Positions 11,498-40,147 of a DNA stretch of 64,000 bases are shown one piece after another. The notes beneath the pieces were generated by a model. The model saw only the letters and a list, made by a program, of their open reading frames with translations. It ran no database searches and was not told where the DNA came from. The DNA is from Blastocatellia bacterium (GTDB lineage Bacteria > Acidobacteriota > Blastocatellia > HR10 > J050): assembly GCA_026985075.1 (NCBI GenBank), contig JALSQX010000033.1, positions 124,001 through 188,000 on the forward strand, read 5' to 3'. Position numbers and translations under genes: made by a program. Numbering within the stretch: the first letter of the stretch is position 1; each line of letters begins with the position of its first letter.

Positions 11498-12511
11498 ATG
11501 ATCATGATGAGGAGGTGGATACACGCGTGGGAACACGCCCTCTATCGTCGTGATGACAACCGACGCATTGGACCATTCGCTTGGGGACTGGACCATCTCG
11601 GCATCGAGGGAGAGAATCCCGACCCCCGTCACCGGCTCCATCGCTTCGTCGAACGAGCGCTCCAGAACAGCGAGGCCTTCTTCACGCCGCCGCCCACCAC
11701 TGCCTACCACTACCAGGATGGAACGCTCACCTTCCCCAGTCCCATCTCCTCCCCGTGGCCGGAGAATAACCGCGTCTGGGCCAACTTCTTCCCCGCCTCG
11801 CCGACCGGCCCGGCGGTGATCGTCCTCCCACACTGGAATGCGCGACCGGAAGCCTACGTGGCGCTCTGCAAGTGGCTCAACGCCTGTCGAATGTCGGCGT
11901 TGCGACTCACCCTCCCTTACCATGAGGCTCGCAAGCCCGCTCATCTGGAGCGCGCCGATTATCTGATCAGCGCCAATATCGGTCGAACGATCCAGGCCTG
12001 CCGGCAATCGGTTCTGGAGACGCGACTGGCCGCCGACTGGCTCATCGAGCGGGGCTACCATCCGGTGGGCATCGTGGGCACCAGCATCGGTTCCTGCATC
12101 GCGTTTCTCGCCTTCGCCCACGATGAGCGATTTCGCGTGGGCGTATTCAATCACGTCTCCTCCTACTTCGCCGATGTCGTCTGGATGGGACTGACCACCC
12201 AGCACGTGCGCCGGAGCCTGGAACCCTACGTGGGATTGGAGGAATTACGGCAGTTCTGGTCGGTCATCAGTCCGTTCGTTTACGTCCCCCGTCTCCGCCG
12301 GATGTCGCGCAAAGCGTTGCTCATCTCGGCCCGCTATGATCTCTCGTTTCTGCCTTCGCTCACCGCCTCGTTCCATCGAGAACTCGACCGCTGGGATGTG
12401 CCGTATGATAAGGTCGTGCTCCCCTGTGGACACTATACGAGCGGCGTCTTCCCGTTCAAGTATCTCATCGGCTTCTCCATCGTCAACTATCTCCGCCGCC
12501 ATCTTCGCTGA
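11498..12511 (+). CDS. Alpha/beta hydrolase, ABHD18-like
   Basis: A 337-residue serine-hydrolase fold. The nucleophile elbow is GIVGTSIGSCIAF (GxSxG), a strand VIVLPHWNARP precedes the oxyanion region, and PCGHYTSG near the C-terminus supplies the likely catalytic histidine. A candidate acid is the aspartate in ISARYDLSFLP. The overall pattern fits the ABHD18/PF09752 group of uncharacterised hydrolases. There is no clear signal peptide. The gene stands alone, and a TetR regulator starts 119 bp downstream. The ATG at 11498 is one of several close by (M1, M3, M4), so the exact start is uncertain. Substrate unknown. Confidence 0.8.
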   Translation: MIMMRRWIHAWEHALYRRDDNRRIGPFAWGLDHLGIEGENPDPRHRLHRFVERALQNSEAFFTPPPTTAYHYQDGTLTFPSPISSPWPENNRVWANFFPASPTGPAVIVLPHWNARPEAYVALCKWLNACRMSALRLTLPYHEARKPAHLERADYLISANIGRTIQACRQSVLETRLAADWLIERGYHPVGIVGTSIGSCIAFLAFAHDERFRVGVFNHVSSYFADVVWMGLTTQHVRRSLEPYVGLEELRQFWSVISPFVYVPRLRRMSRKALLISARYDLSFLPSLTASFHRELDRWDVPYDKVVLPCGHYTSGVFPFKYLIGFSIVNYLRRHLR

Positions 12512-12546
12512 CTGATACGAAGAGCAGTGAGGGGGTGAATTGCTCC

Positions 12547-12576
12547 TTGACGAAACCCGCTCCGAGGGGATAAGAT
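12547..12576 (+). promoter_or_regulatory. Predicted sigma-70 promoter of the tetR-hcr operon
   Basis: TTGACG (12547-12552) and TAAGAT (12571-12576) are separated by 18 bases. Transcription would start near 12583, just before the three-heptamer operator at 12591-12616. The assignment is by eye. Confidence 0.5.
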
Positions 12577-12590
12577 AGGGGCGATGAATT

Positions 12591-12616
12591 TTTGAACTTT
12601 GGTTCAAATTTTGAAC
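12591..12616. promoter_or_regulatory. Three-heptamer palindromic operator, probably for the TetR regulator
   Basis: Three copies of one heptamer alternate in orientation: TTTGAAC (12591-12597), GTTCAAA (12602-12608) and TTTGAAC (12610-12616). Neighbouring copies form two overlapping perfect palindromes, with spacers of four bases and one base. The element ends 13 bp before the TetR start codon and lies just downstream of the predicted promoter, a typical roadblock position for autorepression. Binding by the adjacent TetR protein is inferred from location. Confidence 0.65.
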
Positions 12617-12629
12617 ATGGATTTGAATA

Positions 12630-13289
12630 ATGAGGGATCGGCGACAACTCAAGATCGAACGGAAGAAGGTAGAGATTCTCCAGAGCGCCGCTGAAGCATT
12701 CGGGCGCAACGGCTATCTGGCCACCACCATGGAGGAGATCAGCCAGAAGCTGTTGATGACCAAAGGGAGCCTCTACTATTACTTCACGAACAAGGAAGAG
12801 ATTCTCTATTTCTGTCAGGAGTATTCGCTCAATCGACTGCTCGAACTCCTGAAGGAGGTCAACGCCCTGGATGTCCCTCCGGACGAGAAGTTGCGACGGC
12901 TCATCGTTCGTCAGATCAGCATCATCCTGGATGAACTCAAAGCCGCGGCCATGCACGCTGATTTTCAAATGCTCTCGCCCAAGCTTCTCCGTAAGGTCAT
13001 TCGCAAGCGCGATCGATATGAGCGGGGCGTGCGAGCCATCATTCAACAAGGAATCGATGAGGGTATGTTCGTTCCCTACGATCCCAAGATGGTGACCTTC
13101 GCCATCCTGGGGGCGATCAACTGGACGGTGAAATGGTTCTCTCCGCGCGGGCCGATGACGGCCGTAGAGATCGGAGAGCATTTCGCCGATTACTTCCTCC
13201 GCGGCTTGAAGAAGAGGAGAGGCCCCACCGGGTCGAGAAAGAATCCGGCGGAGGCTCGGCCGACCGGCCGCCTCTCCAAGGAGAGATGA
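12630..13289 (+). CDS. TetR/AcrR-family transcriptional regulator
   Basis: A 219-residue repressor-type protein. The N-terminal helix-turn-helix is canonical: ILQSAAEAFGRNGYLATTME, then EISQKLLMTKGSLYYYF with TNKEEIL closing the domain at about residue 65. The C-terminal ligand-binding half is all-helical and unassigned. It ends three bases before the 2Fe-2S subunit gene and is therefore almost certainly the first gene of the aromatic-reductase operon. Its ligand is plausibly an aromatic CoA ester or related compound (inference). The ATG at 12630 has no strong ribosome site. The C-terminal 25 residues are basic and probably disordered. Confidence 0.9.
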   Translation: MRDRRQLKIERKKVEILQSAAEAFGRNGYLATTMEEISQKLLMTKGSLYYYFTNKEEILYFCQEYSLNRLLELLKEVNALDVPPDEKLRRLIVRQISIILDELKAAAMHADFQMLSPKLLRKVIRKRDRYERGVRAIIQQGIDEGMFVPYDPKMVTFAILGAINWTVKWFSPRGPMTAVEIGEHFADYFLRGLKKRRGPTGSRKNPAEARPTGRLSKER

Positions 13290-22044: not shown

Positions 22045-22148
22045 GGATGCTGAGACGCGTCACGCCACGCGCTGGGCGTTATTTTCAAGCAACCAGCTTG
22101 AACCCGCGGTGAGGATGCTGAGACGCGTCACGCCACGCGCTGGGCGTT
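22045..22148. repeat. 36-bp perfect direct repeat, copies 68 bp apart, at the 3' end of the activator gene
   Basis: Copy 1 is 22045-22080 and copy 2 is 22113-22148; both begin GGATGCTGAGACGCG. Copy 2 contains the last codons and stop of the activator gene, and copy 1 lies downstream of that stop. The intervening 32 bases are unrelated. Only two copies exist. The rsmA gene shows the same arrangement with the same 68-bp offset. Confidence 0.9.
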
Positions 22149-23315
22149 GGCCGAGAGATTCGATCCTTTCCGCGTCCGCGGGCGAAAGGCATCGGGGTCG
22201 ATCTGATGCCGCCGCAGTTTCTCGTAGAGGTTTGCTCCGTAGAGGCCCGTCTGTCGCGCCGTGCGCGAGACATTGCCCTGGTTCAATCTCAAATGATACG
22301 TGAGATAAGCCTTCTCGAAGGCGCCGACGATTCGCTCCTTGGCTTCCCTGAACGAACAATTGAAATCGGCCTCATCGAAGGGGGCCTGGGAGGTCTTCAC
22401 CGACTGGTGGCGAAAAAACGACGGCCGCTGGAACTTCGCCGGCAAGGTATCCATGGTCAGCGTATCCCCATCACAGAGGATGACGGCGCGATGGATCACA
22501 TTTCGCAGCTCCCGGACATTACCCGGCCAGTCGTAGGCTTCTAGCGCCTGGATCACCTCACCGGCGATCCAGCGGATGGACTTGTTCATTTCGTTGGCGA
22601 AGTGTTGGACGAAATACCTGGTCAGCAGCCCGATGTCGTCCTTCCGCTCTCGCAACGGCGGAAGCGTCAAGGTGACCACGTTGAGGCGATAGAAGAGATC
22701 TTCACGGAATGTGCCCGCCCGGACCTTGGCTTCCAAGTCCTGATTGGTGGCGGCGATGAAGCGAATATCCGTGTAACGAGGACGGACGTCGCCCACTCGG
22801 TTGAATTCCCCCTGCTCCAGAACGCGCAACAGCTTCAGCTGGAACGTAGGGCCGATTTCGCCGATCTCGTCCAGAAAGACGGTCCCTCCGTTGGCGGCTT
22901 CGAAGAAACCGACCTTGTCCCGATCGGCGCCGGTGAACGCCCCCTTCACATGACCGAATAACTCACTCTCCACTAATTGATCCGAGAGCGCCGCACAGTT
23001 GACGATCACCAGGGGATGGCGTGCTCGCCGACTCAATCGATGGATCTCCCTGGCCAGGAGCTCCTTTCCCGTGCCGCTCTCGCCAGTGATCAAAACGGTC
23101 GCATCGCTGCGGGCCACTCGGGCCGCCTCGCTGAGGAGATTCTGTAATCGCTCGTTGGTGGTCAGGATCTTGGTGTACGGGAATCGCTGGCTGAATGGGT
23201 GCTCGATGATCATCTCTTCTCGCTCCGTCCACACATCGGCTGTCGCCTGAGATTCGACCGGAATGCTCGTGTGTGACGTCGCTGAGGACGTCTCAGAGGG
23301 GATTCGGTCATTCAT
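22128..23315 (-). CDS. Sigma-54-dependent transcriptional activator without a receiver domain
   Basis: A 395-residue enhancer-binding protein. The AAA+ core has Walker A GESGTGKE (78-85), the sigma-54 contact loop GAFTGA (125-130), Walker B VFLDEIGE (146-153) and the arginine-rich [11 protein letters not shown] and [11 protein letters not shown] blocks. The C-terminus carries a Fis-type HTH ([20 protein letters not shown]). About 50 residues precede the AAA+ region and contain no receiver, GAF or PAS domain, so it is not a two-component regulator; activity may be set by level or an unknown input. The ATG at 23315 follows AGAGGAAG. It lies directly upstream of the sigma-54 promoter of the giant beta-helix gene, its likely target. 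Confidence 0.92.
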
Positions 23316-23496
23316 GCCCACTTCCTCTCGCGCTTCCACTCGCTCGCTCACTCGATCTCGTTCACGAACTCTCTCGCTCGCTCACGCGTCTGTGTTTCTC
23401 CCTATCACAGTCACACGACCATGCGACCTCGACCCACTCGCCCTCACGCTCGATGCTGTTGATCGCTGTTATCTGTTATTATGCTGAGCTTGTGCT

Positions 23497-36179: not shown

Positions 36180-37007
36180 ATGGGAAAACGGACCAGGAAG
36201 CGCTTTGGACAACACTTTCTCGTGGATGGGAATGTCTGCCGACGGATCGTGACGACGGTCAATCTGGCTCCGCCAGACGTCGTCCTGGAGATCGGACCGG
36301 GACGTGGTGCGCTCACTGGCGTGCTGCTGGAAACCGGGGTTCGCGTCCTCGCCGTTGAGGTCGATGCCGAACTCGTCGACCGGTTGACGGCACGCTTCGT
36401 TGATGAGATCCAATCGGGCCAGTTGATTCTCGTCACCGGCGATATCCTGAGAGTGGACCTGGAAGCCCTCTGTCGGCAGGCGCGTCCTGATGGGCCCCTG
36501 CGGGTCTTCGGCAACCTCCCATATCATATCGCGACGGCGGTGATTCAGCGGCTGATCGAGTATCGTACGCACTTCAGCGATATGACGCTCATGCTGCAAC
36601 GAGAGGTGGCCGAGCGGATCTTGAGTCCTCCAGGGAATAAACAGTATGGGTACCTCTCGGTCGTGGTCCAATACCACTGTGAGGGTAAAAAATTGTTTCA
36701 CGTTCATCCTGGCGTATTTCGTCCCATCCCCAAAGTCATGTCGACGGTCGTCCATCTGTGCTTTCGTCCTCAGCCCGCCGTTTCCGTCGAAGATGAAACG
36801 TTTTTCTTCCAGTTGGTCAGCGCTCTGTTTGCCGAGCGACGGAAGACGGTGCTCAATAATCTCAAGCGAGTGGCGCGCCGATTTCGTTTCATCGATCCCG
36901 AGAAGAGTCTGAGAGATGCCCACATCGATCCCACCCGACGGGCAGAAACGCTGAGTCTGGAAGAGCTGGCTCGACTGGCCGACCAGCTCTATCAGTCTGG
37001 GCCTTGA
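36180..37007 (+). CDS. rsmA: 16S rRNA (adenine1518-N6/adenine1519-N6)-dimethyltransferase
   Basis: Dimethylates two adjacent adenosines in helix 45 of 16S rRNA. The 275-residue SAM-dependent enzyme shows KRFGQHFLVDGNVC, the SAM loop VVLEIGPGRGALT, the acidic VEVDAELV, the target-adenine pocket NLPYHIATAVI, and FRPIPKVMSTVVHL. The final 30 or so nucleotides of the gene recur downstream as a direct repeat, described separately. Two tRNA genes follow on the same strand. Confidence 0.95.
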   Translation: MGKRTRKRFGQHFLVDGNVCRRIVTTVNLAPPDVVLEIGPGRGALTGVLLETGVRVLAVEVDAELVDRLTARFVDEIQSGQLILVTGDILRVDLEALCRQARPDGPLRVFGNLPYHIATAVIQRLIEYRTHFSDMTLMLQREVAERILSPPGNKQYGYLSVVVQYHCEGKKLFHVHPGVFRPIPKVMSTVVHLCFRPQPAVSVEDETFFFQLVSALFAERRKTVLNNLKRVARRFRFIDPEKSLRDAHIDPTRRAETLSLEELARLADQLYQSGP

Positions 37008-37070
37008 TCTCGTCGGTGGCTTGCTTCTTCCCGGTCAGTCGACTGGCCGACCAGCTCTATCAGTCTGGGC
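36971..37070. repeat. 32-bp perfect direct repeat, copies 68 bp apart, at the 3' end of rsmA
   Basis: Copy 1 (36971-37002) is the end of the rsmA coding region; copy 2 (37039-37070) lies after the stop. Both begin TCGACTGGCCGACCAG. The 36 intervening bases include the stop and show no similarity. The offset equals that of the repeat at the sigma-54 activator gene. Confidence 0.9.
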
Positions 37071-37117
37071 GCCAGGTTTGACAATTCCCCGGGAGTCCAT
37101 TAAATTAGGCTTCTTGT

Positions 37118-37193
37118 CGGGGCGTAGCGCAGCCTGGTTGAGCGCGCTTGATTTGGGATCAAGAGGTCGGCGGTTCAAATCCGCCCGCCCCGA
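37118..37193 (+). tRNA. tRNA-Pro (UGG anticodon)
   Basis: A full cloverleaf can be drawn: acceptor CGGGGCG/CGCCCCG, anticodon stem CTTGA/TCAAG with loop TTTGGGA (anticodon TGG at 37154-37156), and T-arm GGCGG-TTCAAAT-CCGCC. The discriminator is A37193, and CCA is encoded at 37194-37196. Confidence 0.95.
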
Positions 37194-37197
37194 CCAC

Positions 37198-37272
37198 GCT
37201 CCCGTAGCTCAGTGGGATCAGAGCAACGGCCTTCTAAGCCGTGGGTCGCAGGTTCGAGTCCTGCCGGGAGCG
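37198..37272 (+). tRNA. tRNA-Arg (UCU anticodon)
   Basis: Acceptor GCTCCCG/CGGGAGC, anticodon stem ACGGC/GCCGT with loop CTTCTAA (anticodon TCT at 37233-37235), T-arm GCAGG-TTCGAGT-CCTGC, discriminator G. CCA is not encoded. It begins one base after the CCA of tRNA-Pro, so the two are one transcript. Confidence 0.95.
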
Positions 37273-37442
37273 CTCCTTCCCCTCCGCTCAACCTTGGGGC
37301 GTCTTGAAGGGCATGTGAACATCGCCGCAGCCAAGATCCTTCTGGGCCTGATCTTGATCCGTGCTGGCCTAGAGACATCTGTGAACACCTTCTGTTTTTT
37401 CGTCGTGCCGCTCGGTGAGCGATCCCCAATGGCACACTGATG

Positions 37443-37724
37443 AACACAGAACCGGCGGGATCAACACAGATTACCCCCGAACAACAACCTGTACAAATCC
37501 TGCCTTTCGCTGTGCCGATCGGTGGGCGATTCAAAATGCCCATAGGACGAAGCGCGGCCCTCCGCCCGGGGCTGAACACTTCATCTGAGCCCCGAAGCTG
37601 GCCTCCGGGGATGGTTACACTTCTTGGCCAGAGGATGGGATGCCTCCCCGCCAGTAAGCTGCGGAATGTCCAACCAAAATGCTTCCTGAGAAATTAACAC
37701 AGGACCGGCGGGATCAACACAGAT
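37443..37724. repeat. Two copies of a 29-bp intergenic repeat in a non-coding stretch (37273-37823)
   Basis: Copies at 37443-37471 and 37696-37724 differ at one base and share AACACAG-R-ACCGGCGGGAT followed by CAACACAGAT. Each is followed at variable distance by related sequence of the type CGGTGGGC-x-ATT (near 37520 and 37803), and a weaker relative lies near 37379-37437. No protein was recognised in the 551 bp between tRNA-Arg and the next gene. The pattern resembles dispersed extragenic repeats, but the family is not identified. Confidence 0.6.
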
Positions 37725-39803: not shown

Positions 39804-40147
39804 CTAGATGCTCACTGACCGGGAACCGCTGCTGGTGGTGAAAGGCCCCTGCCCGTCGCCCAGCGGTACCGTCAGTCTTCCCCTTGGGCGTCCCCTGCAG
39901 GAGAGATGTCCGGGAAGCCCCTGCCCGTCGCCCAGCGGTATCGGGACGCCGTCTGAGAGGTCGCGGTGGTGACAACATCCAGGAGGCCATCGCGATTCAG
40001 ATCCGACTCCAATACGGAAAATGGGCCGCGACGTGTCGGACCCTCTGCTCCCGAACTGTTCCGGGCCAGCAGCGGCAGGGCACGCTCTATGACGGCCAGT
40101 ATCGCGGCAACGATAAGGGCGAGCATCATCTTGGGACTGAGGGTCAT
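39804..40147 (-). pseudogene. Frameshifted remnant of a secreted FG-GAP protein, with internal duplication
   Basis: The reading frame from ATG 40147 gives a hydrophobic export segment (MTLSPKMMLALIVAAILAV) and an FG-GAP start (ESDLNRDGLLDVVTTATS), then leaves the expected pattern and stops at 39872. The continuation of the FG-GAP pattern (PLGDGQGLPG and later PLGDGQGPFTTSS) is found in another frame down to 39804. The two LGDGQG segments come from a 24-bp direct repeat (39845-39868 and 39917-39940). Frameshift plus duplication suggests decay or slippage, or an assembly error. Confidence 0.55.

What the first reader, a model, noticed from the sequence alone, without database searches (positions are those of the whole stretch)
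36971..37070. rsmA 3' end duplicated at the same 68-bp offset
The last coding 32 bp of rsmA are repeated perfectly after the stop, upstream of the tRNA-Pro gene, again with 68 bp between copy starts (32 + 36 here, 36 + 32 in the activator gene). Both copies lie just past a gene end in the direction of transcription.
Basis: seen in the sequence. Interest (0 to 1): 0.55.

Follow-up and report, generated by a model that had tools for sequence, protein, structure and literature searches.

The report
CRISPR spacer inserted outside its array
The repeat at the end of this gene looks like a scar left when the bacterium's CRISPR memory-writing enzyme pasted a short piece of DNA into the wrong place, and the same genome seems to carry many such scars.

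Summary
In detail: 32 nt at 36971-37002 recur exactly at 37039-37070 around a 36-nt insert (offset 68); an activator gene has 36+32. The sister genome lacks exactly 68 bp at both sites; at rsmA the outgroup lacks it too, so it is a gain. The pattern recurs: in 1.44 Mb sampled from this 5.2-Mb genome, 22 of 39 spaced repeat pairs left after an automatic filter have offsets 65-79 (binomial p 2e-16); six related genomes gave 1 such pair in 0.8 Mb. Offsets fall into 65-68 and 71-75. The genome has three cas1 loci with arrays: one with 30-nt repeats and mostly 36-nt spacers, two with 37-nt repeats and mostly 34-45-nt spacers, one of these beside an RT-Cas1 fusion. Duplication length, insert length and period match CRISPR units, but each "repeat" is local DNA. 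Best reading: off-target Cas1-Cas2 spacer integration (known; recalled from Nivala et al. 2018), here at high density with a nested case. Gene-end placement reflects what selection tolerates; no terminator or unusual fold was found. Not shown: the responsible Cas1, insert sources, a target motif.

The parts
36971..37002 (+). gene-side copy of the duplicated target (last coding part of rsmA)
37003..37038 (+). 36-nt insert (putative off-target spacer); supplies the new rsmA stop codon at 37005-37007
   Evidence: the only place in the own genome with up to 3 mismatches
37039..37070 (+). second copy of the duplicated target, upstream of the tRNA-Pro promoter
36180..37007 (+). rsmA (275 aa), the gene whose 3' end was the target
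37118..37196 (+). tRNA-Pro (TGG) downstream; promoter-like site 37078-37106 lies after the insertion
22045..22080 (-). outer copy of the 36-nt target duplication past the activator gene
22081..22112 (-). 32-nt insert
   Evidence: the only place in the own genome with up to 3 mismatches
22113..22148 (-). gene-side copy, spanning the stop codon of the activator gene 22128-23351
   Evidence: 68-bp gain against G001
39845..39871 (.). first copy of a third, less perfect pair (offset 72)
39917..39943 (.). second copy of the third pair; 45-48 nt lie between the copies, longer than array spacers

Best explanation
Each unit is the product of one off-target spacer integration by a resident Cas1-Cas2 integrase. 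The enzyme joined a spacer-sized fragment to the two strands of an ordinary chromosomal site at points staggered by about one CRISPR repeat length (30-37 nt); gap repair duplicated the site, giving target-insert-target, a one-spacer neo-CRISPR unit. At rsmA (32+36) the geometry is closest to the resident system with 30-nt repeats and 36-nt spacers; the activator unit (36+32) fits neither class exactly. Sometimes a later integration falls within an existing unit and nests. Survivors sit between genes or at gene 3' ends, where the duplication leaves the gene nearly whole. Shown: gain against the sister genome at two sites, target duplication, lengths and period, recurrence in the genome, three cas1 loci with arrays. 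Inferred: that Cas1-Cas2 is the agent, and which one.
For: 68-bp gain at rsmA and at the activator gene. 22 of 39 filtered pairs at offsets 65-79 in 1.44 Mb, p 2e-16; without one low-complexity pair 21, of which 3 are in the window itself. In a second sample taken after a written prediction, 5 of the 7 pairs left after setting aside GC palindromes and simple or tandem coding-like repeats lie at 65-75. Offsets group at 65-68 and 71-75, none at 69-70; copies (>=29 nt) 29-36 against 33-38 nt, Mann-Whitney p 0.009, inserts 32-41 nt. Resident arrays: 30-nt repeat with spacers 34-39 (88 of 126 are 36), 37-nt repeats with spacers 35-45 and 34-44 plus one of 54. Cas1 loci. Another genus of the family (G002) has 8 units at 70-72 in 100 kb of one contig and an own array unit of 71. 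Six other relatives: 1 pair in 0.8 Mb; rate test p 0.0008, against the three without cas1 alone 0.006. Nested integration at L146.
Against: Three sampled relatives with cas1 (G004, G020, G017) gave 1 pair at 65-79 in 0.4 Mb, so having cas1 is not enough. No target motif: 7 of 60 random sets reached the information content. None of 34 inserts matches 288 array spacers; four 22-mers have no exact match in IMG/VR. Two other sites sought in G001 gave no clean empty site: at L207 only one side aligned, at L146 the flanks are 216 bp closer in G001, not 143 or 72, and align poorly. The activator site has no outgroup, so there a loss in G001 by recombination between the copies is not excluded. GC-rich palindromes with a similar ~70-nt period are unexplained and could point to another process. 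The third window pair (27 nt around 45) fits poorly. No Cas2 was found in the two small ORFs scanned next to RT-Cas1.
Confidence: 0.82

Rival explanations
1. Break repair or template switching: a break with long overhangs is filled in and joined around filler DNA, giving a duplication with unrelated sequence between the copies.
For: Gives target-insert-target without a mobile element; the inserts have no common sequence.
Against: Predicts broad lengths; here offsets cluster in 65-68 and 71-75 and copies near 30 and 37 nt, and six relatives hardly show it.
Confidence: 0.08
2. An unknown very small mobile element or transposase with a target duplication of about 30-37 nt.
For: Clean gains with target duplication.
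Against: No insert matched another unit's insert, and the two window inserts occur once in the own genome; so there is no element sequence in common.
Confidence: 0.05
3. A functional 3' element (terminator, RNA stability or tRNA processing signal) kept as a duplicate.
For: Both units of the finding lie at gene 3' ends.
Against: No terminator-like site, no strong fold, no Rfam match but tRNAs, absent in the sister genome, different sequence at each site.
Confidence: 0.02
4. Assembly or sequencing artefact.
For: The genome is a draft of 105 contigs.
Against: Many units of different sequence share one geometry, several with mismatches between copies; a genome of another genus shows the same.
Confidence: 0.01

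Closest known systems
Non-canonical (off-target) spacer integration / neo-CRISPR loci: Nivala, Shipman and Church 2018, Nat Microbiol 3:310 (paper not held; content recalled; citing passages seen in PMC11788318, and PMC9456107)
   Same: Spacer-sized insert flanked by a duplicated non-array target. PMC11788318 says that overexpressed Cas1-Cas2 can integrate into non-array regions (passage). Recalled: putative natural cases in Yersinia pestis and Sulfolobus islandicus.
   Different: Here about 15 units per Mb in a natural genome, size groups near those of the resident arrays, and nesting. No motif found, whereas passage and recall tie E. coli sites to motifs like those of the native locus.
RT-Cas1 type III-B adaptation modules (abstract starts seen in the listing, e.g. 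PMC11014452, PMC5513706)
   Same: This genome has an RT-Cas1 fusion, best PADLOC model Cas1_IIIb, near a 37-nt-repeat array.
   Different: No evidence here that inserts come from RNA or that RT-Cas1 made these units; no Cas2 identified beside it (two small ORFs scanned).
Ectopic spacer acquisition inside arrays (PMC7999890, abstract start seen)
   Same: Integration at an unusual place.
   Different: There it is within the array; here it is outside arrays, in unrelated sequence.

Membership tests
off-target Cas1-Cas2 spacer integration | non-homologous insert flanked by an exact duplication of the local target, with an empty site in a relative | tested here: met
   2 of 4 sites sought gave a clean 68-bp gain; the other 2 were not cleanly alignable
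off-target Cas1-Cas2 spacer integration | duplication length like the repeat and insert length like the spacer of resident arrays | tested here: met
   the activator unit (36+32) and the third window pair fit less well
off-target Cas1-Cas2 spacer integration | Cas1-Cas2 encoded in the genome | tested here: met
   3 cas1 loci; Cas2 beside one of them; Cas2 for the other two not identified
off-target Cas1-Cas2 spacer integration | pattern absent without cas1 | tested here: inconclusive
   0 pairs at 65-79 in 0.4 Mb of three genomes without cas1, but also only 1 in 0.4 Mb of three with cas1
off-target Cas1-Cas2 spacer integration | targets resemble the leader-repeat junction | tested here: inconclusive
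   30 targets, information content 3.81 against 3.55 on average in controls, 7 of 60 controls as high
off-target Cas1-Cas2 spacer integration | insert derived from foreign nucleic acid | tested here: inconclusive
   window inserts unique in own genome, no IMG/VR hit
off-target Cas1-Cas2 spacer integration | Cas1-dependent integration observed | not testable with these tools
   needs an experiment
canonical CRISPR array | repeat shared with a resident array, several units | tested here: not met
   the copies differ from the three array repeats and occur twice
transposable element with target duplication | element sequence common to several insertions | tested here: not met
intrinsic terminator | G+C-rich stem followed by a T run | tested here: not met
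   0 found in 36900-37300

The most novel reading that the evidence does not exclude
In this family of acidobacteria a promiscuous Cas1 complex, possibly the RT-Cas1, keeps writing spacer-sized fragments across the chromosome, so that the genome carries several dozen dispersed proto-arrays, some growing by repeated integration. Cas1 would then be a measurable source of 65-75-bp insertions and a natural nursery of new CRISPR loci; one insert that holds 24 of 25 nt of the RT-Cas1 array repeat (L203:3304) hints that array DNA or crRNA can be the substrate.
Probability: 0.3. Interest if true: 0.82.

Novelty: new variant of a known kind. Interest (0 to 1): 0.63.

Why it matters
Off-target integration is known mainly from overexpression (recall, and the passage). 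A natural genome with about 15 recognisable scars per Mb, in sizes near those of its own CRISPR units, would make the birth of new CRISPR arrays and the fidelity of different Cas1 enzymes measurable from sequence, and would name Cas1-Cas2 as an insertion mutator that shapes gene ends and intergenic regions.

Tried and rejected
Terminator or structured-RNA role: no site, no strong fold. Rfam at gathering scores: three tRNAs only. Transposon: no common insert sequence. Target motif: not significant. Source of inserts: none among 288 array spacers, none in IMG/VR for four 22-mers. Gene context: both crude gene callers replaced rsmA by an antisense ORF, so the unit of the finding was classed wrongly by both; I say so where I count.

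Rows dropped: one search kept 39 of 182 spaced pairs of G000 after removing pairs whose repeat recurs elsewhere in the sample; this removed GC palindromes and many tandem coding-like repeats, but also true-looking units (L121:17667, L130:3808, L154:8111). From the 22 at 65-79 I dropped L152:3107 by hand (low complexity), leaving 21. The CRISPR loci L115-L117 were left out of the rate although they hold further units (L117 709, 1477, 1564 and L115 8435, 10337; L117 2537). Of the 10 pairs of G002 at 65-79 I dropped two: L246:14126 (simple repeat) and L251:9099 (a regular array cut by the contig end). In the second sample I set aside palindromes (L263, L271) and simple or tandem repeats (L264, L270, L273); the two remaining pairs outside the range are a 17-nt match at 117 and a 28-nt pair at 186. 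Stretches were chosen by contig, not at random. The output was cut in the middle. In one search random places were 37 nt long, units about 85-115 nt.

Full report
What is there. A third pair lies at 39845/39917, offset 72.

It is a gain at rsmA. There rsmA runs on to the TGA inside the TTTGACA of the tRNA promoter; in the next genus, G002, the same TTTGACA follows without an insert (sequence printed). So the insertion is derived here; it gave rsmA a new stop and left the tRNA-Pro promoter (37078-37106) untouched. At the activator gene the two alignment blocks overlap by 20 nt in G001 and are 48 nt apart in the query, again 68 bp, but G002 aligned only further inside the gene, so polarity there rests on the parallel with rsmA. 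Two more sites gave no clean answer: at L207 only one side aligned; at L146 the flanks are 216 bp closer in G001 and align poorly.

It recurs. I sampled the own genome in stretches. In the first sample plus window (1.05 Mb) a mismatch-tolerant scan gave 28 isolated pairs at offsets under 120, 26 of them at 65-79, GC palindromes included. After an automatic filter against dispersed repeats, 39 pairs remained in 1.44 Mb, 22 at 65-79, binomial p 2e-16; one is low-complexity and 3 of the other 21 are in the window that raised the question. A second sample of 398 kb, fetched after a written prediction, gave seven pairs once palindromes and simple or tandem repeats were set aside: five at 65-75, one 17-nt match at 117, one at 186. 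The offsets form two groups, 65-68 and 71-75, with none at 69-70. At 21 per 1.44 Mb the whole genome would hold some 75 (extrapolation).

The match to CRISPR. The genome has three cas1 loci. One has a Cas1b-like Cas1 and a Cas3-like helicase with a 30-nt repeat and 34-39-nt spacers, 88 of 126 of them 36 nt; one has Cas1, Cas2 and Cmr6 with a 37-nt repeat and 35-45-nt spacers; one has an RT-Cas1 fusion (reverse transcriptase 92-299, maturase-like domain 314-379, Cas1 471-757) with Csx1-like and SAVED neighbours and a 37-nt repeat with 34-44-nt spacers and one of 54. Off-array units with copies of at least 29 nt: longer class 33-38 nt copies and 34-41-nt inserts; shorter class 29-36 and 32-39; copy lengths differ, Mann-Whitney p 0.009. 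In G002, 100 kb of one contig hold eight units at 70-72, and one of its own arrays shows a unit of 71, 37+34; another has 76-77. G001 gave one pair at 65-79 in 98 kb. Six other genomes of the order and class, three with and three without cas1, gave one such pair in 0.8 Mb, an 18-nt match.

Mechanism. Cas1-Cas2 joins a spacer to opposite strands at two points one repeat apart, and gap repair duplicates the repeat (established knowledge). At an off-target site the local sequence is duplicated instead. That predicts what is seen: unrelated inserts of spacer length, local duplications of repeat length, an exact empty site. Repeated integration is visible at L146: a 36-nt duplication with two mismatches lies at offset 143, its first 18 nt also match at offset 71, and an exact 36-nt duplication at 72 is nested within it.

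Where they survive. By a crude gene caller, 20 of 21 units lie outside ORFs of at least 200 aa, against 23% of random places; four overlap a gene's 3' end and none a 5' end, while random places overlap both about equally (1.8% and 1.7%); the caller missed rsmA, which would be a fifth.

What is not shown. No target motif reached significance. No source of the inserts was found, apart from one insert with 24 of 25 nt of the RT-Cas1 array repeat and one G002 insert sharing up to 24 nt with a dispersed sequence of G002. Three sampled relatives with cas1 lack the pattern, so promiscuity would be a property of this family's enzymes. L117 holds four units in its first 3 kb, which suggests enrichment near arrays; I did not test it. 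A GC-rich palindrome family with a similar period remains unexplained.

Literature. Six searches of the library reached the 2018 work only through papers that cite it (passages seen); the paper itself is not held, so its content is recalled. I saw no report of such density in those listings, which does not prove that none exists.

Noticed in passing
L117:9421-11832 (minus), genome of the window: RT-Cas1 fusion of about 800 aa with group II-intron-like reverse transcriptase and maturase-like domain, near Csx1-like and SAVED proteins and a 37-nt-repeat array.
   Followed up: partly
L121:17948-18390, L131:5100-5640, L159:3535-4050, L220:5365-5530 and 12142-12650: Dispersed GC-rich palindromes with paired changes in both arms, in clusters with a period of about 66-75 nt, the size of the off-target units; the sequence between palindromes is partly conserved (REP-like). 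Cause not known.
   Followed up: partly
L203:3304-3397: The insert of this unit holds 24 of 25 nt of the array repeat beside RT-Cas1.
   Followed up: no
L117:2497-2532: A lone, slightly changed CRISPR repeat outside the array, directly beside the off-target unit at 2537.
   Followed up: no
L115:2322-2364 and 2711-2753; arrays in L115, L116, L117: An identical 43-nt spacer occurs twice in one array, and several spacers of different arrays overlap by 19-29 nt, so the systems sampled the same invaders.
   Followed up: no
window 37440-37471 and 37693-37724: A 32-nt sequence (94% identical, offset 253) repeated downstream of the tRNA pair.
   Followed up: no
L003 (G001), rsmA-tRNA-Pro junction: In G001 the rsmA stop codon lies within the -35 region (TTTGACA) of the tRNA-Pro promoter; the insertion separated the two in this genome.
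   Followed up: yes
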